Positions 50,426 through 61,379 of a stretch of DNA of 64,000 nt are shown here, in pieces (the first letter of the stretch is position 1; each line of letters starts with the position of its first letter). This stretch comes from Candidatus Lokiarchaeota archaeon (GTDB lineage Archaea; Asgardarchaeota; Thorarchaeia; Thorarchaeales; Thorarchaeaceae): the NCBI GenBank assembly GCA_014730275.1, contig WJIL01000084.1:1-64000 (forward strand), in the 5' to 3' direction. Made by a program: the position numbers and the translations under genes. Below the pieces are notes generated by a model, which saw only the letters and a program-made list of their open reading frames with translations, was not told the DNA's origin and made no database searches.

Positions 50426-51052
50426 ATGTCCTCTGATGAAATTGTAACTGAGTGTCCTGCGTGCAAGAAAGAAAGCATGACAGTTAAGTCAATGGTGTAT
50501 CCTATCCCATATTTTAACGAATTGATCATTTTTGTGATGAAATGCTCTGAATGTAAATTCACCCAAAAGGACATTTTCTCTGTGGAACAACGCCCTCCGG
50601 TGCGCTGGGAACTGTTGGTTGACGATGTTGATTTGCTGAAAACACGTGTCATTCGGTCCGGTTCGGGAACCATGAGATTGCCTGATTTTGGTATAGATGT
50701 TGAACCAGGACCAGCCGCAGAAGCCTTCATCTCAAACGTAGAGGGGGTAGTTCAGAGGATGCATGACGTTACAGGTATCGCAATGCGAAGTGCTGATACC
50801 GAAGAGCAACAAGAGCGCGGGAAAGAAATTATGGAAAAATTGAAAGAAGCTATGGAAGGAAATCTCGCCTTCACGTTGGTTATTGAGGACCCAGCAGGTG
50901 TAAGCGCCATTCTTCCTGATGACATGAGCAAAGTCAATCGCACTGAGCTTTCTGAGGAAGAAGCTTCTGAGCTTCGGGGTGCGCCCTTCTGGCTGGACAA
51001 CATCAGGGACGAATACGCAAAGGTTGTTGAAACGCACGGTTCAGCGACATGA
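50426..51052 (+). CDS. ZPR1-type zinc-finger protein
   Basis: 208 residues with one ZPR1 module: a zinc finger (CPACKKESMTVKSMVYPIPYF then MKCSECKFTQKDIF, a Cx2C–Cx2C finger with the conserved YxIPYF) followed by the alpha/beta domain (TRVIRSGSGTMRLPDFGIDV, EPGPAAEAFISNVEGVV). Eukaryotic ZPR1 has two such modules and acts as a chaperone for elongation factor 1A; archaeal proteins have one and probably act likewise. The last 50 nt overlap the end of the next gene on the other strand. Confidence 0.93.
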   Translation: MSSDEIVTECPACKKESMTVKSMVYPIPYFNELIIFVMKCSECKFTQKDIFSVEQRPPVRWELLVDDVDLLKTRVIRSGSGTMRLPDFGIDVEPGPAAEAFISNVEGVVQRMHDVTGIAMRSADTEEQQERGKEIMEKLKEAMEGNLAFTLVIEDPAGVSAILPDDMSKVNRTELSEEEASELRGAPFWLDNIRDEYAKVVETHGSAT

Positions 51053-51662
51053 GCTCATCTTGGACTTCCCAGAGGTCAGACCGGTCTTCTGAAAACCACG
51101 CCGTGATGACTCTCGGAACGGCACGCCCACCGGCCTGCTCGTAGTTCCAGAGATTGCGAAGAATACGTTCCCGGTGCTGAGGTGGATCTAAAGCGCTAAC
51201 AGACCCGTGCATGATGGCACCGATTCGGGCAAAACGGCAATGGACAGGATTGTCGGCTTCCACCAGGAACCGTGTCAGGATGACGGTCTCCTTGTCGAAC
51301 GTGTCGCAGAACTCTGCAACCCTCACAGCAAGCAGCCAGTCAAGAGAAGGGTCGCCCATGACCCCGTTCCTGACGTAGTCCCACTCCAAGCGCTCTAAGT
51401 CCTTTGTTAGCAGCTGTTCGTTGAAGCGGTTAGGAATCGGCACCCAGTGCCTGATGTGATACCGTGTCATCGATTCGGCCAGGTAACAGTGGCTGTAGCG
51501 CCACCGGCCCCCATAGACCGCTGTGAACAGATAACCACGTACGCTAGTAGGAAGTGCCCCAATCTTAGTAATATTCCCGCGGCCATGCACTTTCTTTTTT
51601 GAAATCAAGTGTGATTTTTGTTCCTGAATAGACAGATTTCCCTGCGAATGAATATACTCCAA
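51003..51662 (-). CDS. Protein of unknown function at the edge of the accessory island
   Basis: Up to 219 residues; the start is uncertain, with a TTG at 51662 the longest choice. The chain has many Trp, Arg and His residues (YGGRWRYSHCYLAESMTRYH, DLERLEWDYVRNG) and an alpha/beta pattern, but I find no metal or nuclease signature. Codon use is more GC-rich than in flanking housekeeping genes. Its 3' end overlaps ZPR1 by 50 nt in antisense, unusual for this compact but orderly region, which hints at a recently arrived gene. It could also be a remnant. Confidence 0.5.
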   Translation of the reverse strand: MEYIHSQGNLSIQEQKSHLISKKKVHGRGNITKIGALPTSVRGYLFTAVYGGRWRYSHCYLAESMTRYHIRHWVPIPNRFNEQLLTKDLERLEWDYVRNGVMGDPSLDWLLAVRVAEFCDTFDKETVILTRFLVEADNPVHCRFARIGAIMHGSVSALDPPQHRERILRNLWNYEQAGGRAVPRVITAWFSEDRSDLWEVQDELMSLNRAFQQPLRIRP

Positions 51663-51814: not shown

Positions 51815-51889
51815 TGGTGGACCGGACGAGAATCGAACTCGTGTCCTTCTGGATGCAAACCAGACGATCTACCGCTGATCTACCGGCCC
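51815..51889 (-). tRNA. tRNA-Ala (anticodon TGC), CCA encoded
   Basis: Read on the minus strand from 51889: acceptor GGGCCGG pairing CCGGTCC with the G3:U70 alanine identity pair, TA, D-arm GATC/GATC, anticodon stem TCTGG/CCAGA around TTTGCAT (anticodon TGC), variable AGGAC, T-arm ACGAG TTCGATT CTCGT, discriminator A and an encoded CCA. No intron. It borders the accessory island and is a possible integration site. Confidence 0.97.
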
Positions 51890-52182: not shown

Positions 52183-52404
52183 ATGCCGAAAGAACCAACC
52201 AAGGGAACTGTTCAAACGATTACGAAACGATATGGGAACCAAAACCCCACCAGTTCCAGGGAAGAGGGAACCTGGCATCAAATCCACCAGCTTCCCGGCC
52301 TCAATATGGACTCAACAACTTTGGAATTCATTATCATACCAACGCAATCTCAGCTCATGACCCTGTGCGAGTATCTTCTATGGGAGAGAATATATGATGA
52401 GTGA
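52183..52404 (+). CDS. Small 73-residue protein, coupled to the next gene
   Basis: Starts with an ATG; AGGAGGG lies ~17 nt upstream. The sequence has a basic, polar N-terminal half (KEPTKGTVQTITKRYGNQNP) and a hydrophobic C-terminal half (TLEFIIIPTQSQLMTLCEYL). It overlaps the next gene by 11 nt through ATATGATGAGTGA, which supports it as real and translationally coupled. The layout could suit a small DNA-binding or antitoxin-like partner, but nothing proves this. Confidence 0.5.
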   Translation: MPKEPTKGTVQTITKRYGNQNPTSSREEGTWHQIHQLPGLNMDSTTLEFIIIPTQSQLMTLCEYLLWERIYDE

Positions 52405-53023
52405 AGATGCAGGCTCAGATGACCTCAGCGAGTTCATGGCCCCAAGGAAATCTGAGGAGGAAAATCCGTACGTACTCAGAGTCATGACTGGAAAGGCGAT
52501 TATTGTCGATCTTGACTGGTATCCCGAAATGCACGAAGACTATGAAGAACTGGAAGAGCTAGAGGAAGAACAGGCGCTCTGGCAGATGTTCGTCTTCAAG
52601 TGCATGGACGAGATTAAGTTTCTTGATGCTGATGCACAGTACGAGGAGCTGACCTGGAGTGAGAATTTGATTGACTGCTCCTTGCTTCTCGTACCCACTG
52701 CCATCCACAGGATTCAGGGACCAATCGGGCTGTACCCACGATTCTGGGGCTACATATGCAAACAAACCCCGGGAGACCCCTCAGTTACTGCCTTGAAGGC
52801 AACGATATCATTACCTGCAGATCTCTCAGGGATCGTAGAGAAAAGCCCAGATATCACGTTCGGATATACTGCAAATCCTCTGAATGATAAGAAGGTGCTC
52901 ATGCTCTCTACGACGTACTGGGGGCTTAAGGAATTCGAGAAAGCTGGTGAGGAACGGCACGCACATAAGTTCGGGGCGACTGAGGTCCTCATGGGGCACC
53001 GCTCGGAGGAGTGCCCTCATTAA
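52394..53023 (+). CDS. 209-residue protein, possible partner of the giant nuclease
   Basis: Acidic protein of unknown family. The N-terminus is disordered-looking (MMSEDAGSDDLSEFMAPR), followed by an acidic helix (YEELEELEEEQALWQMFVF) and a mixed beta-rich body (SLLLVPTAIHRIQGPIGLY, FWGYICKQTPG). The C-terminus ends in HRSEECPH. No catalytic motif. It overlaps the 73-residue gene by 11 nt, and its stop overlaps the stop of the 1409-residue gene by 4 nt in convergent orientation. The tight packing suggests that the three arrived together. Confidence 0.6.
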   Translation: MMSEDAGSDDLSEFMAPRKSEEENPYVLRVMTGKAIIVDLDWYPEMHEDYEELEELEEEQALWQMFVFKCMDEIKFLDADAQYEELTWSENLIDCSLLLVPTAIHRIQGPIGLYPRFWGYICKQTPGDPSVTALKATISLPADLSGIVEKSPDITFGYTANPLNDKKVLMLSTTYWGLKEFEKAGEERHAHKFGATEVLMGHRSEECPH

Positions 53024-56000
53024 TCTCCCCATTTCCCATACCGCTCTCGAATAATCCTGATACGGGCTGTATGACCGGGATGATGCTTCTTCATAGATAT
53101 CCCCCTGTGCTTTGCTGACAATTCTCGCATGATTTCGCTTTCGCTGAAAACGAGTCTGTCAAAATCTGTTTGACCCGGGTCAAATTTCAGTACGATTCGC
53201 CGTCCTTTCAGTACTACTTCTAGGGTATCGATGAGCTCTCCCACTTGCTTATCTGTCAGTCCTTCTCTAATGCCAATGTTCTTGCCACCCAAGAGCCGCC
53301 AGCTACTTGGAGACAGCTCCACGGCCCAACAGGCATCATGATCTAGATTCGGGTCTTTGGCAAGGGGACATAGCGCCTTATTGTGATAGATGGTGATTTG
53401 CTCTGGTTGCAGGTCTTCCACAGCATCATCGATGAGGGGGGAGAGCGACGGTCTCAGGGCCCTTGAGGTGCTCACCATGTAGCTTTCTAGGAATCCATAC
53501 TCTTCTCCGAAGTCAATGTCTGGTTCTATCCGAGAATAATCATGGAGCGTGTTCCATGTCAGGTGGAGTTTCCCTATCCGCAATGGCCTTCCCGCTGTCC
53601 ATGGCCACCTGAGCAACCTCAGAACATCAACGGTATTTTTGAGTAGGAGTGTCTGAAGGGATGTTTCGCCTTCACTGTCTAAGAACTTGACCGCACAACG
53701 TTCACCATACTTACGCAGCTGCACCTTCACCGATTGTACCTGCACGAGCTTCTCGGACAAGTCGCGAATAGTGCTCCGGAAACTAGTCTCGAAACCTGAA
53801 GGAAACGGAATGTCTGGGACCGAAACACCTTCTGGGGGCTTCCTTGGGTTGATGCCAAAACCTTGCAGAGTGATGTCAGCTGAGCTCCGACGCAGGACAT
53901 AGTCACACGTACCCACGAATGTCCCACCCGAAGGACCGCCAGTCTGCCTCCAGATCCACCACTCGGGGCTCTTCTCTGCATTCGAATTCGGGTTCCTCTT
54001 CCTTCTGAGAATATATGTCTCCACGTCCTTGAAGCGATGGAATCGTTTTGCAGCTTGACGTACCAAGTCTAGTCGCTGGACATCCCAGTCAAACCCTTCC
54101 TTGGTCTCACGAGTCGGGAATAACCCGAATGCGATTCCCGCTGCCGTACTCGGATCCAGTACAGCACGCCACTCATACTCTTCTCCATATGATGATAGGA
54201 TCATTACGAAGCGGATATGGGCAATCTCTACCTGGTCTTGTGTTGGGCATGGTTTCTGCTGGAGCCGCCAAGGTTTGGTTTTCAATTTCTGTGGTTCATG
54301 GTATATCCGTGGATAATTGATGACACCGACATACAACGGCTGAAAGGCCTTGCCTCCTCCAGCGCCGTCAGGTCGGATTCGCACGCGTTCAAGCAGGGAA
54401 GGCGCACTGTCTGGAGGAGTCCCCAGTACGGACCGTTCAAAGGTGGTTACGTCCCGGGGAATCGAGTATTCTGAAAGCATTTGTTCGTACTCTTGAAGAA
54501 TACACTGGAATCCGTGCTTGGCGTCCATCTTCTGGGTCGGGTGCAGGTCAACGAGCCAGGGGATTAAAGAGAGCCCAAGGGTTTCCATCCGGGCCCTGAC
54601 CGAGGCATCAGGCACCACCTCGGCAAAGCTATTTCTATGGGAGACTTCTCCCATGTCCCTGTTATCGAATCTTTTCGACCACTCCATAAGCAGGGGAACG
54701 AGGGTTGATTCTATTGAGAAGCCTGTCTTCCGCTGCCTGACTATGACTCTAATATCGTCATACATCGGTGTTTTTGTGGGATAAGGCAAGAACCACTCCC
54801 CGGGAAGGACTTCATCCCGCGGGGCCACAGGCAGGTTCCAGATAATCTCGTTGACAATACCTCGCAGGGGAGACGAGTCATAGAACGGGAGCAGTGAGCG
54901 TTTGGAATAAGGGGTTGACATTTCTGCTGCTGGTACAGGTGAGTCAAACCAGAAGATGGTGGCTGAGTCCGAAGTTGGGAGCTGTGAAAGTATGATTCTG
55001 AGGAGTGGATTCAGTCGCCATCGGTAGGGCCCCGGTGTTGCGTATCGGATTGTATCCATCCCGGAGACTACGATCAAGCAGTTTTCTTGCGGGAGCGATT
55101 CCAATCGTTTTCCTACCGCTTCAGCGGTACCATTGCGGAAGATGAACGAATCAATCTCGTCAAAAAGCCCCCTGAACGAAATCATATCAACAAGTTCCTG
55201 GACATCCTGCCGGTGGGTCCGCCGAGTGTCTTCTTCATCGGTTGAGTAGGGTCGGAGCAACAACCGGGCTTCACGAAGCTCCGGTTCTATGAAATCGCTG
55301 GCTAGGTCTATCCAAACAATCTTATCGTACTGGTGTTCTTCAGCTATTTGCTTGATTTCCTGTAGCCCATGATAGTGCTTCGCATGCCAGGCCGCTGATA
55401 TACCAGAAGAGGTTGGTGATGCTGCTGATGTATAGAGCAGGAATCTCCTTCCGTCAGATTGTGCCAGCGCTAATGGATCGTATGAGGGTCGCCATGATGG
55501 TCTTATTGGCGGTTCGGTAGGGTCCACCGGCTGTTCTCTTTTATTCATGATGAGAGCAATCCGGGGCTTGTGTCCACGGACCTTTGGCTCAAGCACGAGC
55601 CTGCCGCCACTAGGAGGGTTCTTTACCACTTCTTCGTAGGCATTGATGATCAATCCACGGAGCATGTCTCGAAGCAGCCTGATATCCTCGGTCACGTCAA
55701 CAAGTATTGTTCCCGTGAAGATGGCGGGCTCCTCCGCACATCCAGTCAATTCCTTGTATGTATCCCAAACTGCAGCTGTATAGGTGTCAATCTGTTTTTG
55801 TGTCCCTTCGTCCGGCATGGCCTGAATGAATGCTTCCCATTCCTCGTCATCCAGCGGCCTTCGACCGAAGCGGTAGTCTATAACCCGTTTGTATCTCTTT
55901 TTCTCTTCCTCTTGCTTTCTGAACGCATACTCAGGCGGGAGGGTACGCTCCACAAATGTGCGTTTTATGTCCACTTCAGAGTGGATGTCTTTGATACCTA

Positions 56001-57249
56001 GTGTTATACTAGGTCCCAGTTTTGTTTTCAAATCCAGTACCATAACCGGTCGGTAATGGGCTTGATTTCCCTGCTCAGATACTACCCGCCGCAAGAGGAT
56101 CACATCCGCTTTTCCTTTACCTTTCTCTGTATCGAGAGGGGTCTCAAAACACACGAGATACCCGTCACTCCTTCCGTACGAATCACCCCGTGTAATCGCG
56201 TCACGGAGTGACCAGGGGCTGGTCAATTGACTGAACACAAACTCATGGACGCGTGACCCGGTCGTACTGGCCTTCTCCTCGAGGCGGGAATGGAGCCTAG
56301 CCATATCGTCCTCGCGGAACAGCGACTCATCTTCGACTAGTAACTCAAACTCTTCAATCGACTCATGAGTGATTCCCTTAGAGTATACCTCCTCAATCCA
56401 AGCGCGACAGATATCCGTGGACAGGGTCGGTTTCCTCTCCGTCTTGGACTCTGTGACCGTTTTTGGTGCTCCTTGACGGGTTTCATAGTGATACTCAACG
56501 TCTTCTTTCAGTTCCCTGAGTATGCTATCGGTTCCTCCTCTGAATCCGTTCTTTCCGATAAGGCATTCGGAGTATAAATAATCTAGATAGGGGCGGGCTC
56601 GTAGCTGGTAGAGGTTCCAGTAGCGGCCGGCGTCCCTTGGAGGTATATCGTAGATGAAGGCGTAGCCTGCGAAATAGTCGAGGTGGTGCCTGATTGAGTC
56701 GACTAGGTCAAGCGACGGAAGATCCGGATGGACGAGTGGAGTGCGAGGACCGTAGGAATCCGGAGGATATCCTGCTACACGGTATTTCTTCCTTTTTTCT
56801 CCGACTATCCGAGTTTTATAGCCAAACAGTTCAGGGTCGGGGAAGAGGTACCGGGTCATACCGAAATTGCGGAGCTGGGCACCGAGGACATTGAACCGCT
56901 GATTCAGCGGCCCAACTTTCGCGTGGGGGTTCCTGATACGTTTTACTTCTACATTTCCGTATGCTGCCGTGTTTTCCATGACCATCTTTAGGAGGTTCTT
57001 CCGGATGATCGACTCTGCTTTGAGGACGTACTTGTGGTCTCCTTCATCGTTTTCGACGGTCTGATAATAGACATCCTTTGCGGCTACCAAACTGTCACGC
57101 GAACTTCGATAGAGGTTCTCAGTATTTTTATTCTGGATGTTTCGCTGCAATTCAACAGCAGCAGAGAGACCTCTGCGTACCGCGAGTGAGACCACCTTGT
57201 TTGGGTGTTTAGGCATGACCTTTGGGGGTCGTCCACGACTTCTTGGCAA
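53020..57249 (-). CDS. Giant protein with RecB/Cas4-like nuclease motifs and a degenerate P-loop-like region
   Basis: 1409 residues; I recognise no full-length family. Residues ~370–490 carry the PD-(D/E)XK pattern of RecB/Cas4-type nucleases: Asp382 in GKADVILLRR, Asp406-x-Lys408 in VLDLKTK, and the downstream QIDTY (QxxxY, 486–490). Residues ~600–770 look like an alpha/beta ATPase: a strand LLYTSAAS followed by SPTSSGIS where a Walker A (GxxxxGKS) would be, a Walker-B-like LIVVSGMD and a sensor-like ATIFWFDS. The P-loop Lys is absent, so ATP hydrolysis is doubtful. The N-terminus is very basic (SRGRPPKVMPKHPNK, AT-hook-like GRPPK). The remaining ~600 residues are beta-rich and unassigned. 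A DNA-targeting defence or mobile-element nuclease is likely, by inference. Confidence 0.7.
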   Translation of the reverse strand: MPRSRGRPPKVMPKHPNKVVSLAVRRGLSAAVELQRNIQNKNTENLYRSSRDSLVAAKDVYYQTVENDEGDHKYVLKAESIIRKNLLKMVMENTAAYGNVEVKRIRNPHAKVGPLNQRFNVLGAQLRNFGMTRYLFPDPELFGYKTRIVGEKRKKYRVAGYPPDSYGPRTPLVHPDLPSLDLVDSIRHHLDYFAGYAFIYDIPPRDAGRYWNLYQLRARPYLDYLYSECLIGKNGFRGGTDSILRELKEDVEYHYETRQGAPKTVTESKTERKPTLSTDICRAWIEEVYSKGITHESIEEFELLVEDESLFREDDMARLHSRLEEKASTTGSRVHEFVFSQLTSPWSLRDAITRGDSYGRSDGYLVCFETPLDTEKGKGKADVILLRRVVSEQGNQAHYRPVMVLDLKTKLGPSITLGIKDIHSEVDIKRTFVERTLPPEYAFRKQEEEKKRYKRVIDYRFGRRPLDDEEWEAFIQAMPDEGTQKQIDTYTAAVWDTYKELTGCAEEPAIFTGTILVDVTEDIRLLRDMLRGLIINAYEEVVKNPPSGGRLVLEPKVRGHKPRIALIMNKREQPVDPTEPPIRPSWRPSYDPLALAQSDGRRFLLYTSAASPTSSGISAAWHAKHYHGLQEIKQIAEEHQYDKIVWIDLASDFIEPELREARLLLRPYSTDEEDTRRTHRQDVQELVDMISFRGLFDEIDSFIFRNGTAEAVGKRLESLPQENCLIVVSGMDTIRYATPGPYRWRLNPLLRIILSQLPTSDSATIFWFDSPVPAAEMSTPYSKRSLLPFYDSSPLRGIVNEIIWNLPVAPRDEVLPGEWFLPYPTKTPMYDDIRVIVRQRKTGFSIESTLVPLLMEWSKRFDNRDMGEVSHRNSFAEVVPDASVRARMETLGLSLIPWLVDLHPTQKMDAKHGFQCILQEYEQMLSEYSIPRDVTTFERSVLGTPPDSAPSLLERVRIRPDGAGGGKAFQPLYVGVINYPRIYHEPQKLKTKPWRLQQKPCPTQDQVEIAHIRFVMILSSYGEEYEWRAVLDPSTAAGIAFGLFPTRETKEGFDWDVQRLDLVRQAAKRFHRFKDVETYILRRKRNPNSNAEKSPEWWIWRQTGGPSGGTFVGTCDYVLRRSSADITLQGFGINPRKPPEGVSVPDIPFPSGFETSFRSTIRDLSEKLVQVQSVKVQLRKYGERCAVKFLDSEGETSLQTLLLKNTVDVLRLLRWPWTAGRPLRIGKLHLTWNTLHDYSRIEPDIDFGEEYGFLESYMVSTSRALRPSLSPLIDDAVEDLQPEQITIYHNKALCPLAKDPNLDHDACWAVELSPSSWRLLGGKNIGIREGLTDKQVGELIDTLEVVLKGRRIVLKFDPGQTDFDRLVFSESEIMRELSAKHRGISMKKHHPGHTARIRIIRERYGKWGD

Positions 57250-57389
57250 CGGTGGTCTTGTTGAGGCTTATTTTCTTTTGTTTTTTGCGGGTATATATTT
57301 ATTATAGTTAATTATTAAACTGGAACTAGGATGTCTTCAATGCGCCTAGATGATTATCAAATAATAAGATAATATTTCTCCTTAATAGG

Positions 57390-57483
57390 TTTAAATATGA
57401 CTATACTGTATCAAAGTATGAGTTCATTACCTCGGGTGAAAACAATACGAGGAGTGAACTCAACTAACCCCGGAACAGGTTAG
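57390..57483 (+). promoter_or_regulatory. TATA element and two hairpins upstream of the tnpB gene
   Basis: An AT-rich gap (57250–57504) separates the divergent giant-nuclease and tnpB genes. TTTAAATATG at 57390–57399 is a good TATA box. About 20 nt on, GAGTTCA/TGAACTC with CCTCG/CGAGG forms an imperfect hairpin at 57420–57461, and CTAACC/GGTTAG a second at 57464–57483. A second TATA-like TTTAAATAG follows at 57487. RNA from the first promoter would start almost exactly at the first hairpin. The hairpins could instead be the left end of an IS605/IS1341-type element. Confidence 0.5.
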
Positions 57484-57504
57484 AGGTTTAAATAGGCGAT
57501 ACCC

Positions 57505-59187
57505 ATGACACGCTCCCACGCCCCAGTGATTACGGTTAAAATCCCTATAGCATGGGATGAGATGACCAGCTCCAGTCGTCAGCGATTGGAGCAAATCACT
57601 GGAAGGGATTCGCGGATCATCCATGCGTTCTTTGGTATCATCGAAGAGAATGAAGGAGAGCTCCTTAGGGGTAAGGGCAAGAAGCGTATTGACGAAAACA
57701 AGCTTCATGCCATGACCATGACTGCCTTGCGGGTTGCTCATGGTGAGGAACAGAGACTGGAAGTTGAACATGACTTCAAGGAGCGGTTTCCCCGTATTTC
57801 TGCTAATGAGTTGTCCGAATGTCGGCGAATCGCTATTGCCAATTACGAGAGCTATTTGGCCCTGCGCGCCAAGAAGTGGAGGAAAGCCTCCCGACCTGCA
57901 GAGACCAACAGCGAAAAGCGGATACCTCGTATGATGTACATCCCTCGGAGAGCGAAACTCGTTGAGCATGACACAACGATTGCACGGCTGTGGCTGGATA
58001 TCCGTGATTCCTTGGACTCAGTGCAAGAGGGCCGGAGGATTCATGATAGGCTCCGCATCCCCTTGAAGATCGCTCCCTTTCATCTTGAAGAACTGGCGAG
58101 AGGGAAGCCAAAGGCTGTACAGGTATTCGCCGACCGACATGGTAAGTGGTGGACTGGTATAATTGTTCGCCTTACTACTGTCGAAAAAAGAAAGGACGCT
58201 GAGCTACCGCCTGCTATCCTTGGGATTGACCTGGGTATCAATTGCGCGGCATGCACGACGCTGCTTACTCAGCACAAGGTATCCAAAACCCGTTATTTCA
58301 AGCAGAAAGAGAAACATCAGGTGTTTCTTCGATATGAGGAGCGAATAGCAGACCTTCAACATGACCTTGATACGAGAAGAAGCAATGGGAAGAACTGTGA
58401 TGGGTTGATCCGTAAACTTAAGGAACTCAAGACAAAACGAGCCGATGCGGCTAAGACCTATGATCGGGCCCTGGTCAGCAATCTCCTGTCGTATATCGAA
58501 AAGCTAAGCCAACGGTATCAGCTCTATGTTGGTATCGGGAGGCTCAAGGGTATCCGGAATGCCGCCAGACGTGGAAATTACAAAGGCCCTACGTTCAGAG
58601 GCATGGTACACAGATGGAGCTTCTCGCGGATCACTGAGGGGCTCAAACACGGGCTCGAACAGCTCGGGTGGGAAGTGGAAGGCAAGGATAGCCGCTTCCA
58701 TGCGGTACCCGAGAACTGGACCTCGATCATGTGCTGGAAGTGTGGCAACAAGGGAGTGCGCCCCAAGCAATCGTTGTTTGTATGCCACACGTGCGGCTTC
58801 CGCACCAATGCCGACCGCAATGGCTCCCTCAACATCGCACGTCGTTTACTTACACTCATTCCTTCACTTAAGGATGAGACCGGACTAGGGCGGTGGGCCA
58901 CCCCCGAACGGGGGAACGGTTCAGCCCCGAAGGCTGCAAGGCGGACACGTTCCGCTAAGCAGAAGTCCTCACTCTCCAAACAAGGGACATCATCAGCCCC
59001 TGGAGAGTCCGCGGTTGTTCGCTTTGTCCAACTGGACCTGTCTGGTTTCGGCGACGAGACTGGGCGGAGCGATAATAACCCCGCCGTGGCAAAAGCTGTG
59101 GAAAACCTCGCTGCCCCCGGGCGTGATGTGCCTGGAACCGGGCAGGAGACAGAAGCCGAGACCGCAAGAGGGACTGTGTCCTGCTGA
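57505..59187 (+). CDS. tnpB: TnpB-family (IS605 OrfB/Cas12 ancestor) protein with altered RuvC-II
   Basis: 560 residues, longer than the usual ~400. RuvC-I is ILGIDLGIN (Asp242); the zinc finger has Cys410/413 (CWKCG) and Cys427/430 (CHTCG); RuvC-III is TNADRNGSLNIA (Asp437). The RuvC-II segment reads YVGIGRLKGIR, with Gly345 where active TnpB has the catalytic Glu (VxE-x-L). The enzyme is either nuclease-dead, like TnpB-derived RNA-guided repressors, or uses a relocated Glu, as in some TnpB clades. No tnpA is nearby. The last ~110 residues are low-complexity and lie over DNA with strong hairpins, so they may exist because a guide-RNA scaffold overlaps the gene end. GC-rich relative to neighbours. 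Confidence 0.88.
   Translation: MTRSHAPVITVKIPIAWDEMTSSSRQRLEQITGRDSRIIHAFFGIIEENEGELLRGKGKKRIDENKLHAMTMTALRVAHGEEQRLEVEHDFKERFPRISANELSECRRIAIANYESYLALRAKKWRKASRPAETNSEKRIPRMMYIPRRAKLVEHDTTIARLWLDIRDSLDSVQEGRRIHDRLRIPLKIAPFHLEELARGKPKAVQVFADRHGKWWTGIIVRLTTVEKRKDAELPPAILGIDLGINCAACTTLLTQHKVSKTRYFKQKEKHQVFLRYEERIADLQHDLDTRRSNGKNCDGLIRKLKELKTKRADAAKTYDRALVSNLLSYIEKLSQRYQLYVGIGRLKGIRNAARRGNYKGPTFRGMVHRWSFSRITEGLKHGLEQLGWEVEGKDSRFHAVPENWTSIMCWKCGNKGVRPKQSLFVCHTCGFRTNADRNGSLNIARRLLTLIPSLKDETGLGRWATPERGNGSAPKAARRTRSAKQKSSLSKQGTSSAPGESAVVRFVQLDLSGFGDETGRSDNNPAVAKAVENLAAPGRDVPGTGQETEAETARGTVSC
58901..58955 (+). ncRNA. Three consecutive hairpins in the tnpB 3' end (omegaRNA scaffold candidate)
   Basis: CCCCC GAAC GGGGG (58901–58914), CAGCC CCGAA GGCTG (58922–58936) and GCGGA CACGT TCCGC (58941–58955) are perfect 5-bp stems in a row, just after the RuvC-III codons. 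TnpB guide RNAs are made from the 3' end of tnpB and the adjoining element end, so this is where the scaffold is expected. The 3' limit and guide are not determined. Confidence 0.55.
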
Positions 59188-59223
59188 TGGTGGTCAAAGT
59201 CCTTGCTTAGCCGGGGGTAGCGC

Positions 59224-59366
59224 CCTGGTGTAGTGGTGACACTGGGCAAGGAAAGGGTGGAACATAGGAGTTTCATCAGTTGGGTTCACTCACCCAACCG
59301 CGAAAACAGGTTATCCAGGAAGTCGCGTGTTCAAATCACGCTCGGTCCACCACTTTCCTTTTTTCG
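59224..59366 (+). tRNA. tRNA-like 3' half with long insertion; 5' half not identified
   Basis: A perfect T-arm (GCGTG TTCAAAT CACGC, 59325–59341), acceptor strand TCGGTCC, discriminator A and CCA end at 59352, followed by a T-run terminator (59353–59366). CCTGG at 59224 could pair with CCAGG at 59315 as an anticodon stem around ~86 nt containing a TTGGGT/ACCCAA hairpin, as an intron would. TGGTGTAGTGG at 59226 resembles a D-arm instead. I find no 5' acceptor strand (GGACCGA-like) nearby, so this could be an intron-rich tRNA, half of a split tRNA, or a remnant left at an integration site. The left boundary is a guess. Confidence 0.4.
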
Positions 59367-59806: not shown

Positions 59807-60041
59807 CGGTATCGCCCCCTCTCTTTGGAATGTCATCTCCGTTGGTAATCCAACATGTTGCTATTCGTTTCCTATGCCGAGTCACCTATAAGTGCGGGTT
59901 AGCCGGACAACCACGAGGGGGATATCAGTCCTCAGAGGTCACCACCAAAAAGGGCTCTTCTCCTCAGAGTCAGAAAGTATAATTGGAGTCTTTAGTTTGA
60001 TAGAACAGTCACATGATTCTTTAGCCACAGGTGACAATACC

Positions 60042-61379
60042 ATGAGTCCTGATACCAACAAGCCGAAAGCTGCCGTCTTCTGGGATGCTGAAAATGTTAC
60101 TTCCGTACGAGACGAGCGCATAGCAGAAGGTTTCAAGAATTGGCTTGATGAGGTATACGACGCCGAAGTCAAATACGCATTTGCTGATTGGAACGGTCCG
60201 TATCAGGATGTGGGAAAGCGCCTGTATCGCATTGATTTTGATCTTATTCACGTTCCAGATGATTTGAAGGATAGTGCCGATTGTCAGATGGCCACCTATG
60301 TTGTGGACTGGCTCGTGCGCTCGCCTGAAACGGAATCGTTCATCTTGGTTTCATCAGATGCTGTGTTTGAGCCTCTGATGATTGCACTTCAGAAGCAAGG
60401 AAAGGACGTTGTTGTTGTCAGCAGTCCAATGATCACACGCCCCGAAACAGTGATTCGGTCAGATGAATACTTGGACATTGATTCGTTCCGTCCAGTTGCC
60501 TATGATTTAGAAGTAATCGGCGAGGAACACACAAAACAGCGTTCTCCCGAAGAACTACGAGCTATCGGCTTTAGGAGATTGCAGGAAACCATTGTCAGAA
60601 TCAAAAAGCTGGGAAAGGCAACCTATCCCCGATATGTAGAAGCAGTAGTCAAGCATCTTAATCCAGAAATAGACATCACTCGATTGGGCTTCGACGACTG
60701 GGGACAGCTCATTTCACAGGCTCTCATTGAGGAGCTTGTTGTGAAAGAAGGAGAGAAACCATATGCAGAGCTGAAGCTTCGGAAGTCGGTTGCTAAGCTG
60801 ACCGAGGATCAGACTGATACGCTAGATGCAACCTTCGAGAGATTTAGAGAGCTTGTAGAATCAATGGCCAGCCAAAGTGATTACATGGGCATGGAACGAG
60901 TTGTCCAAAAAGTCCGAAACGCTGGTATCGATTTCACAAAGCATGGCTACGATAAATTCGGTGATTTCGTGAGAGCAGCTGAAAGCCGCAATCTTGTACG
61001 CATAGAGCCTCAGGAAGGAAAACCTCCTGCAGTTAAACCAGTATATAGTGTGGAGCAAATGAAGAACTGGTACGAAAACAATGTCAAAGATTACTTTGGG
61101 TCGGGTGCGAAAGTTCCCCGTGATCGATATATCCAGCGAACTATCCAAATGCTCTACAAATATGATGTGAGTATCCATGAGATGGAGAAGTACTTGAAGG
61201 ATAGCAACATTCAGCGTAAATATCAGCGCATCCTCAAAGCAAGTGGCCTGTCATTCATCCCACCGTATGAGCAGATAATAGTGAGCATACTATTTGGCAA
61301 GGGCTGGAGTTGTGAGGACGTTATTGATGTCGTCAACTCAGAATTGGAACCGCTAGGATACGCTGTTGAGTGTCCCTAG
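60042..61379 (+). CDS. NYN-domain endoribonuclease fused to OST-HTH/LOTUS-like repeats
   Basis: About 445 residues. The N-terminal NYN (PIN-like) domain shows the acidic residues expected of the nuclease: AVFWDAENV, DLKDSADCQMATYVVDWL and FILVSSDAVFEPL. Two OST-HTH-like winged helices follow: one near GKATYPRYVEAVVKHLNPE with LGFDDWGQLI, and one near DYMGMERVVQKVRNAGID with HGYDKFGDFVRAAE. The C-terminal ~110 residues are helical. The same domain pair occurs in eukaryotic MARF1-type proteins and bacterial LabA-like proteins; RNA binding and cleavage is the likely role. ATG at 60042 is chosen for the AGGTGA eight bases upstream. Confidence 0.88.
   Translation: MSPDTNKPKAAVFWDAENVTSVRDERIAEGFKNWLDEVYDAEVKYAFADWNGPYQDVGKRLYRIDFDLIHVPDDLKDSADCQMATYVVDWLVRSPETESFILVSSDAVFEPLMIALQKQGKDVVVVSSPMITRPETVIRSDEYLDIDSFRPVAYDLEVIGEEHTKQRSPEELRAIGFRRLQETIVRIKKLGKATYPRYVEAVVKHLNPEIDITRLGFDDWGQLISQALIEELVVKEGEKPYAELKLRKSVAKLTEDQTDTLDATFERFRELVESMASQSDYMGMERVVQKVRNAGIDFTKHGYDKFGDFVRAAESRNLVRIEPQEGKPPAVKPVYSVEQMKNWYENNVKDYFGSGAKVPRDRYIQRTIQMLYKYDVSIHEMEKYLKDSNIQRKYQRILKASGLSFIPPYEQIIVSILFGKGWSCEDVIDVVNSELEPLGYAVECP

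What the first reader, a model, noticed from the sequence alone, without database searches (positions are those of the whole stretch)
52183..57249. Candidate new DNA-targeting module: a 1409-residue RecB/Cas4-like nuclease with two small convergent partners
Seen: the giant protein has D382, D406-x-K408 and QxxxY (486–490), the motif order of RecB/Cas4-type PD-(D/E)XK nucleases, plus a basic AT-hook-like start and an ATPase-like core whose P-loop Lys is absent. The 73- and 209-residue genes overlap each other by 11 nt, and the stops of the 209- and 1409-residue genes overlap by 4 nt. Known: giant nuclease genes with small partners next to tRNA genes are common in archaeal defence islands and integrated elements. 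Inference: these three genes form a unit I cannot match to a named system.
Basis: partly seen in the sequence, partly recalled or inferred. Interest (0 to 1): 0.78.

Follow-up and report, generated by a model that had tools for sequence, protein, structure and literature searches.

The report
Giant nuclease paired with RNA-guided TnpB
In Thorarchaeota, relatives of the cells that gave rise to eukaryotes, a new family of very large DNA-cutting proteins travels with an RNA-guided cutter (TnpB); the guides often point at the cell's own ribosomal or transfer RNA genes, while the copy of that RNA gene next to the element is usually changed so that it should escape, which looks like a natural cut-and-rescue selfish element.

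Summary
The ORFs and nuclease motifs are real, but the unit was drawn wrongly. The 1409-aa protein belongs to an undescribed family (about 1400-1960 aa, multicopy, Thorarchaeota, remote Heimdallarchaeota). Its RecB/Cas4-type PD-(D/E)XK motifs are invariant in 48 full-length homologues; a RAD51/RecA-like domain without a P-loop follows. The 209-aa gene recurs only in its closest clade; the 73-aa ORF never. The constant partner is the divergent gene outside the given coordinates, 57505-59187: a TnpB with a Fanzor-like relocated glutamate, followed by a structured omegaRNA. A divergent TnpB flanks 47 of 56 giants with 1 kb of upstream sequence; other copies carry IS607 TnpA or a Rad51-like gene. 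Some TnpBs occur without a giant. Guides match 16S rRNA or tRNA genes far above chance, and elements sit beside such genes. The neighbouring gene is usually altered at the guide site: 30-nt introns split 16S sites in four genomes, and tRNAs are recoded. In the window the omegaRNA abuts a broken tRNA-Ala half; the only intact tRNA-Ala(TGC) found has 5/17 mismatches to the guide. Best reading: an IS607-derived cleave-and-rescue/homing element, the giant processing breaks. Sequence evidence only; three guide-16S pairs are unprotected; the left end is unresolved.

The parts
53020..57249 (-). 1409-aa giant protein: AT-hook-like N-terminus, helical region, RecB/Cas4-type PD-(D/E)XK nuclease (about 313-502), RAD51/RecA-like domain without P-loop (about 600-870), C-terminal part with conserved Cys/His (H1289, C1294, H1304, C1307)
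57505..59187 (+). 560-aa TnpB, divergent from the giant gene; RuvC D242, canonical Glu replaced by G345, alternative Glu E403, D437; Cas12f1-like TNB zinc finger
57250..57504 (.). 255-nt intergenic region between the divergent giant and tnpB starts (spacing 73-362 nt in 43 of 47 pairs), presumably the promoters
   Evidence: promoter role inferred
59064..59314 (+). omegaRNA/reRNA-like conserved region overlapping the 3' end of tnpB, ending ...TTCACTCAC...AACAGG(59309-59310)TTAT; paired structure with covariation
59315..59331 (+). predicted 17-nt guide CCAGGAAGTCGCGTGTT, lying in the relict tRNA-Ala half
   Evidence: guide role inferred
59313..59352 (+). relict 3' half of the native tRNA-Ala(TGC), at the place where relatives hold an intact tRNA-Ala between ZPR1 and the NYN gene
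51815..51889 (-). intact tRNA-Ala(TGC), inverted, 10/40 mismatches to the relict half and 5/17 to the guide; proposed resistant rescue copy
   Evidence: rescue role inferred
52394..53023 (+). 209-aa protein, convergent with the giant gene, conserved only with the closest giants; function unknown
52183..52404 (+).

Best explanation
The locus is one copy of a family of IS607-derived selfish elements of Thorarchaeota that combine a TnpB RNA-guided nuclease and its omegaRNA with a new giant RecB-type nuclease. Proposed working: TnpB, guided by about 17 nt at the end of the omegaRNA, cuts the sensitive (wild-type) allele of an essential rRNA or tRNA gene. The element sits beside a copy of that gene that the guide no longer fits, because a roughly 30-nt intron splits the target or bases are recoded. 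Cells without the element lose the gene or repair it by copying the resistant allele with the linked element, so element and resistant allele spread together (natural cleave-and-rescue / collaborative homing). The giant, with a RecB/Cas4-like active site and an ATPase-dead RAD51-like domain (and in one subtype a neighbouring Rad51-like ATPase), would process the broken ends or steer the copying. Shown by sequence: giant-TnpB pairing, intact nuclease motifs, omegaRNA, guide matches, adjacency, altered neighbours. Inferred: cleavage, rescue, spread, and the giant's task. My estimates: giant is a RecB-type nuclease 0.9; TnpB is its functional partner 0.9; guides target rRNA/tRNA genes 0.85; cleave-and-rescue logic 0.5; giant acts in recombinational repair 0.35.
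For: Pairing: divergent TnpB beside 47 of 56 giants with at least 1 kb of upstream sequence (31 type 1, 16 type 2), spacing 73-362 nt in 43. IS607 TnpA above NCBI's cut-off and a Rad51-like gene in other copies. Giant: invariant nuclease motifs; AlphaFold pLDDT 85, pTM 0.85; best PDB fold match RAD51 paralogues, E 3e-4. TnpB: relocated glutamate as in IS607/Fanzor TnpBs. OmegaRNA: 28 pairs, 11 with double compensatory changes. Guides: 12 of 45 match 16S/23S/tRNA by at least 13 nt exactly, against 1.55% of random stretches; the target is preceded by T in the strong cases. Adjacency: tRNA within about 510 nt of 12 elements and 16S beside 4. Altered neighbour: 16S introns split the guide site in G004 (A), G000 and G001 (B), G006 (C); all four 16S guide sites A-D are intron sites somewhere in the family; tRNA-Arg beside L039 AGTCTAGCACGGAT vs guide AGTCTAGTCTGGAT; tRNA-Tyr beside L049 recoded with a compensated acceptor stem. 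Window: relict tRNA-Ala half at the syntenic place, intact copy 5/17 mismatched, relatives' alleles 2-3/17.
Against: No activity, RNA or splicing data exist. Three of seven guide-16S pairs in 16S-adjacent elements are not protected: G001 site A, G006 site D, and a scaffold-less second site in G004. The simple chance value for 4 of 7 (1e-6) ignores shared ancestry of G000 and G001. About half of the guides match no rRNA/tRNA and may be ordinary insertion flanks; L050 and L046 guides match their own neighbouring tRNA. In an independent set of 20 further TnpB loci only 2-3 guides hit RNA genes. TnpBs also occur without a giant, so the giant is not needed for TnpB. In the window the left end and the missing 5' half of tRNA-Ala are unexplained, and whether the inverted tRNA-Ala belongs to the element is not shown. 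The intron at position 37/38 of tRNA-Ala in G009 is at the usual archaeal place, so it is not special evidence.
Confidence: 0.5

Rival explanations
1. An ordinary IS607/IS605-type transposon with cargo: it inserts near tRNA and rRNA genes; the 'guide' is just the insertion flank and TnpB protects the element at its own site (peel-and-paste). The giant is an accessory nuclease that helps transposition.
For: IS607 TnpA in several copies and a GG at the right end; multicopy and patchy distribution; in the window and in L043 and L050 the right flank runs on into a tRNA; about half of the guides have no RNA target.
Against: In the 16S cases the element is not inside the 16S gene; L094 shares exactly 17 nt with 16S and then diverges, L062 18 nt, while the 16S genes next to the elements of G004, G000, G001 and G006 are complete and split by an intron at a guide site. 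Paired guides to different sites of one gene lie in one element (L058, L094, L074).
Confidence: 0.27
2. A host-serving or defence system: giant and TnpB were adopted to attack invading DNA or element-free competitors that carry standard rRNA/tRNA genes, in the manner of a toxin-immunity pair.
For: Intact nuclease motifs and long-term conservation across genera; guide-resistant host genes would give self-immunity.
Against: No PADLOC match for the giant or small genes, no matching viral contigs, transposase genes and broken copies, guides not aimed at viruses as far as tested.
Confidence: 0.1
3. The giant is mainly a DNA-repair or recombination factor whose link to TnpB is only through being carried by the same mobile element.
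For: One subtype lies in an operon with a Rad51-like protein and has no divergent TnpB (L063, L079, L083, L085, L090, L091); the inner domain has a RAD51-like fold.
Against: 47 of 56 giants have a divergent TnpB at a narrow spacing, and they pair with two different TnpB lineages, which suggests functional selection.
Confidence: 0.13

Closest known systems
IS607-family elements and their TnpB, including Fanzor-related TnpBs with relocated Glu (PMC10711439)
   Same: TnpB with TNB zinc finger, alternative Glu just before the zinc finger, omegaRNA at the right end, GG at the end, IS607 TnpA in some copies
   Different: A 1400-1960-aa nuclease is added, TnpA is missing in the window copy, a type-2 TnpB with canonical Glu can replace type 1, and guides point to rRNA/tRNA genes with altered neighbours
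RecB/Cas4/AddB-type PD-(D/E)XK nucleases
   Same: Motif order G..H, D, D/E-x-K, QxxxY, all invariant
   Different: No detectable sequence similarity (Pfam, PDB); joined to an ATPase-dead RAD51-like domain and long unknown regions
Aloposons of Heimdallarchaeia (PMC8813620)
   Same: Asgard mobile elements with giant genes beside tRNA genes
   Different: Aloposon proteins are 3000-6000 aa in tandem with a ParA-like ATPase; the paper's text has no mention of TnpB
Archaeal rRNA introns with homing endonucleases (16S introns, PMC4496867) and collaborative homing (own knowledge)
   Same: Nuclease targets the intron-less allele; the intron protects
   Different: RNA-guided TnpB instead of LAGLIDADG enzyme; enzyme gene outside the intron; very short introns of 30 nt
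Synthetic Cleave-and-Rescue / home-and-rescue drives (e.g. PMC7968924)
   Same: Nuclease against an essential gene linked to a recoded copy, more than one guide in some elements
   Different: Natural, archaeal, aimed at RNA genes; effect not yet shown by experiment

Membership tests
TnpB RNA-guided nuclease | RuvC acidic triad and TNB zinc finger | tested here: met
   D242 and D437 conserved, Glu relocated to E403 in the complete copies aligned; PF07282 above cut-off. NCBIfam guided_TnpB 81 bits, below its cut-off of 100
TnpB RNA-guided nuclease | OmegaRNA overlapping the 3' end of the gene and ending at the element border, followed by guide | tested here: met
   Conserved to the end motif, then divergence; covariation
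TnpB RNA-guided nuclease | RNA-guided DNA cleavage next to a TAM | not testable with these tools
   Only a T before the matched targets was seen
IS607 element | TnpA serine recombinase in the element | tested here: not met
   Absent from the window copy; present above cut-off in related copies L069 and L051. The window copy is filed as IS607-derived, not as a complete IS607 element
IS607 element | Insertion at GG without terminal inverted repeats | tested here: inconclusive
   GG at right end (59309-59310); left end not found
RecB/Cas4-type PD-(D/E)XK nuclease | Motifs H, D, D/E-x-K, QxxxY | tested here: met
   48 of 48 homologues
RecB/Cas4-type PD-(D/E)XK nuclease | Core fold recognised by structure comparison | tested here: inconclusive
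   Predicted helices and strands 313-502 are in the expected order, but the top Foldseek hits cover the RAD51-like domain
Cas4 | Four-cysteine Fe-S cluster and CRISPR association | not tested
   No Cas4 profile or PADLOC hit for the giant; cysteine pattern and CRISPR arrays not examined
Aloposon | Tandem 3000-6000-aa genes with ParA-like ATPase | tested here: not met
   Single 1400-1960-aa gene with TnpB
Cleave-and-rescue element | Nuclease aimed at an essential gene plus a linked resistant copy | tested here: inconclusive
   Sequence pattern fits in several copies, with exceptions; no function shown

The most novel reading that the evidence does not exclude
A natural RNA-guided cleave-and-rescue drive: TnpB elements of Asgard archaea cut wild-type 16S rRNA and tRNA genes and spread with linked copies made resistant by 30-nt introns or recoding, which would also explain why short introns accumulate in Thorarchaeota RNA genes; the giant RecB/RAD51-like protein is a dedicated repair enzyme for the copying step.
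Probability: 0.4. Interest if true: 0.95.

Novelty: new variant of a known kind. Interest (0 to 1): 0.85.

Why it matters
It would be a natural counterpart of engineered cleave-and-rescue drives, a new role for TnpB nucleases with a Fanzor-like active site in archaea close to the origin of eukaryotes, and a testable cause for the spread of rRNA and tRNA introns. It also adds a new family of giant nucleases with a RAD51-like domain.

Tried and rejected
Dead TnpB (regulator) was considered because the canonical RuvC-II Glu is an invariant Gly; rejected after finding the invariant alternative Glu described for IS607/Fanzor TnpBs. Giant as a known defence protein: no family match. Viral origin: no viral contigs and no good viral fold match. 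C-terminal model (870-1409, pLDDT 75) gave no usable fold match. Aloposon membership rejected. A clean left end and target-site duplication for the window copy were sought without success; a left-end motif (...GCAGCTGTTTGCAACCC) was seen only in other copies. Same-genus genome G001 gave no syntenic tRNA-Ala site. 23S as target of the TGCATGCAGCC guides stayed unproven (11 nt). The 23S intron table is unreliable for L210 and L214, which lie on the opposite strand, and was not used. My notebook gives E404; the correct residue number is E403.

Full report
OBSERVATION. The three ORFs lie exactly where stated, with the 11-nt and 4-nt overlaps. The giant protein has no match in Pfam, NCBIfam, PADLOC or the PDB. 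It is not a chance ORF: homologues were found in 23 of 59 genomes searched, all of them in the window's family, often in many copies, with none in the 22 genomes of other families. Named records are almost all Thorarchaeota, with remote relatives in one Heimdallarchaeota genome. In 48 full-length homologues the nuclease residues G331, H335, G379, D382, P401, K408, Q486 and Y490 are invariant and position 406 is D or E; the P-loop lysine is absent in all.

FOLD. AlphaFold on residues 1-900 with 25 sequences gave pLDDT 85 and pTM 0.85. The best PDB match is a RAD51-paralogue complex (E 3e-4), followed by Dmc1, RecA, KaiC and FlaH; with no P-loop this is an ATPase-dead RAD51/RecA-type domain. The nuclease region shows helix 313-339 (H335), strands 364-410 (D382, D/E406-x-K408) and helix 481-502 (QxxxY), as expected for PD-(D/E)XK enzymes, but the structure search did not single it out. 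The C-terminal 540 residues remain unassigned.

THE REAL UNIT. The gene upstream and divergent, 57505-59187, is a TnpB. Of 56 giants with at least 1 kb of upstream sequence, 47 have a divergent TnpB: 31 of the window's type and 16 of a second type (700-760 aa, canonical glutamate); in 43 pairs the spacing is 73-362 nt. Most of the remaining giants form a third subtype in an operon with a Rad51-like gene, some with IS607 TnpA and type-2 TnpB nearby. IS607 TnpA also occurs convergent with the giant gene, in the place that the 209-aa gene holds in the window's clade. The 209-aa gene is found with 6 giants including the window's; the 73-aa ORF has no homologue. TnpB also exists without a giant in several genomes, so the giant is an addition to TnpB elements. 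The window's TnpB has D242, G345 instead of the canonical Glu, E403 and D437; this relocated glutamate is the arrangement described for IS607/Fanzor-related TnpBs.

OMEGARNA AND GUIDES. A conserved region overlaps the 3' end of tnpB and ends ...TTCACTCAC...ACAGGTTAT, after which copies diverge. Twelve copies fold into a consensus with 28 pairs, 11 of them with compensatory changes. The own genome holds five further omegaRNA-like pieces without a tnpB gene. Of 45 predicted guides, 12 match 16S, 23S or tRNA sequences exactly over at least 13 nt from the guide start (random stretches: 1.55%), 14 over at least 12 nt (2.45%); the matched target is preceded by T in the strong cases. Guide starts were set by hand from the end motif, so their exact first base is uncertain by a few nucleotides. 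A separate set of 20 further TnpB loci was weaker: 2-3 RNA matches, with tRNA or 16S close to four.

POSITION AND ALTERED NEIGHBOURS. Twelve elements have a tRNA gene within about 510 nt, including the window; by tRNA density (28 found in 3.6 Mb) about one or fewer is expected. Four lie beside the 16S gene: G000:C130, G004:C9, G006:C131 and G001, where two contigs overlap by exactly 127 nt inside the giant gene. 16S genes of this family carry insertions of 30 (one 32) nt at several sites; I call them introns by analogy with known archaeal rRNA introns, splicing is not shown. The guides of the 16S-adjacent elements match the uninterrupted sequence at sites A, B, C and D. The host 16S is interrupted at the guide site in G004 (A), G000 (B), G001 (B) and G006 (C), but not in G001 (A), G006 (D) or G004 (second guide, B). 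If guide positions were random, 4 or more of 7 would have a chance of about 1e-6, an overstatement because G000 and G001 share ancestry. For tRNAs: the tRNA-Arg beside L039 has three changed bases in the guide target; the tRNA-Arg beside L043 has a 30-nt insertion in the D-loop and a recoded anticodon arm; the tRNA-Tyr beside L049 is changed in the acceptor stem with compensation. L050 and L046 do not fit, since their guides match the neighbour.

THE WINDOW COPY. In relative G002 (and, with an intron in the tRNA, G009 and G019) the order is ZPR1, tRNA-Ala(TGC), NYN gene. In the window the 3' half of that tRNA (59313-59352) follows the omegaRNA, and the 5' half is gone. The only intact tRNA-Ala(TGC) found in the genome (99.5% complete; tRNAs with introns may be missed) lies inverted at 51815-51889 with 5 of 17 mismatches to the guide, while relatives' alleles have 2-3. 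The left border of the element was not found, so whether this tRNA is carried by the element is open.

READING. The pattern fits a selfish RNA-guided element that cuts sensitive rRNA or tRNA alleles and is linked to a resistant one. The giant, with nuclease motifs and a RAD51-like domain, most plausibly handles broken ends or the copying step; this part is inference. No paper found in the library describes it, but the library is partial.

Noticed in passing
L202 (G009:C2 16S), about ref position 918: 849-nt insertion in the 16S gene at a site where G002 has a 30-nt one; may hold a homing-endonuclease gene
   Followed up: no
G000:C86:17736-18053, C9:12461-12757, C66:84-386, C103:6579-6872, C143:5337-5486: OmegaRNA-like pieces without a tnpB gene, each with its own guide-like end; targets unknown
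   Followed up: partly
window 59892-61379 (+): NYN-domain protein with weak LOTUS match, syntenic with tRNA-Ala and ZPR1 in relatives
   Followed up: partly
window 51003-51662 (-): 219-aa ORF overlapping the end of ZPR1, without homologues in the fetched loci; lies where the lost left border should be
   Followed up: partly
L085, L090, L091, L063, L079, L083: Third giant subtype (about 1425 aa) in an operon with a Rad51/RadA-like gene
   Followed up: partly
L151, L153 (Heimdallarchaeota CSMAG_823): Remote giant homologues (24-25% identity) outside Thorarchaeota; neighbours not examined
   Followed up: no
L077 6058-6165, L048 near 4480: tRNA genes with what look like introns in the T-arm, an unusual place, beside elements
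   Followed up: partly
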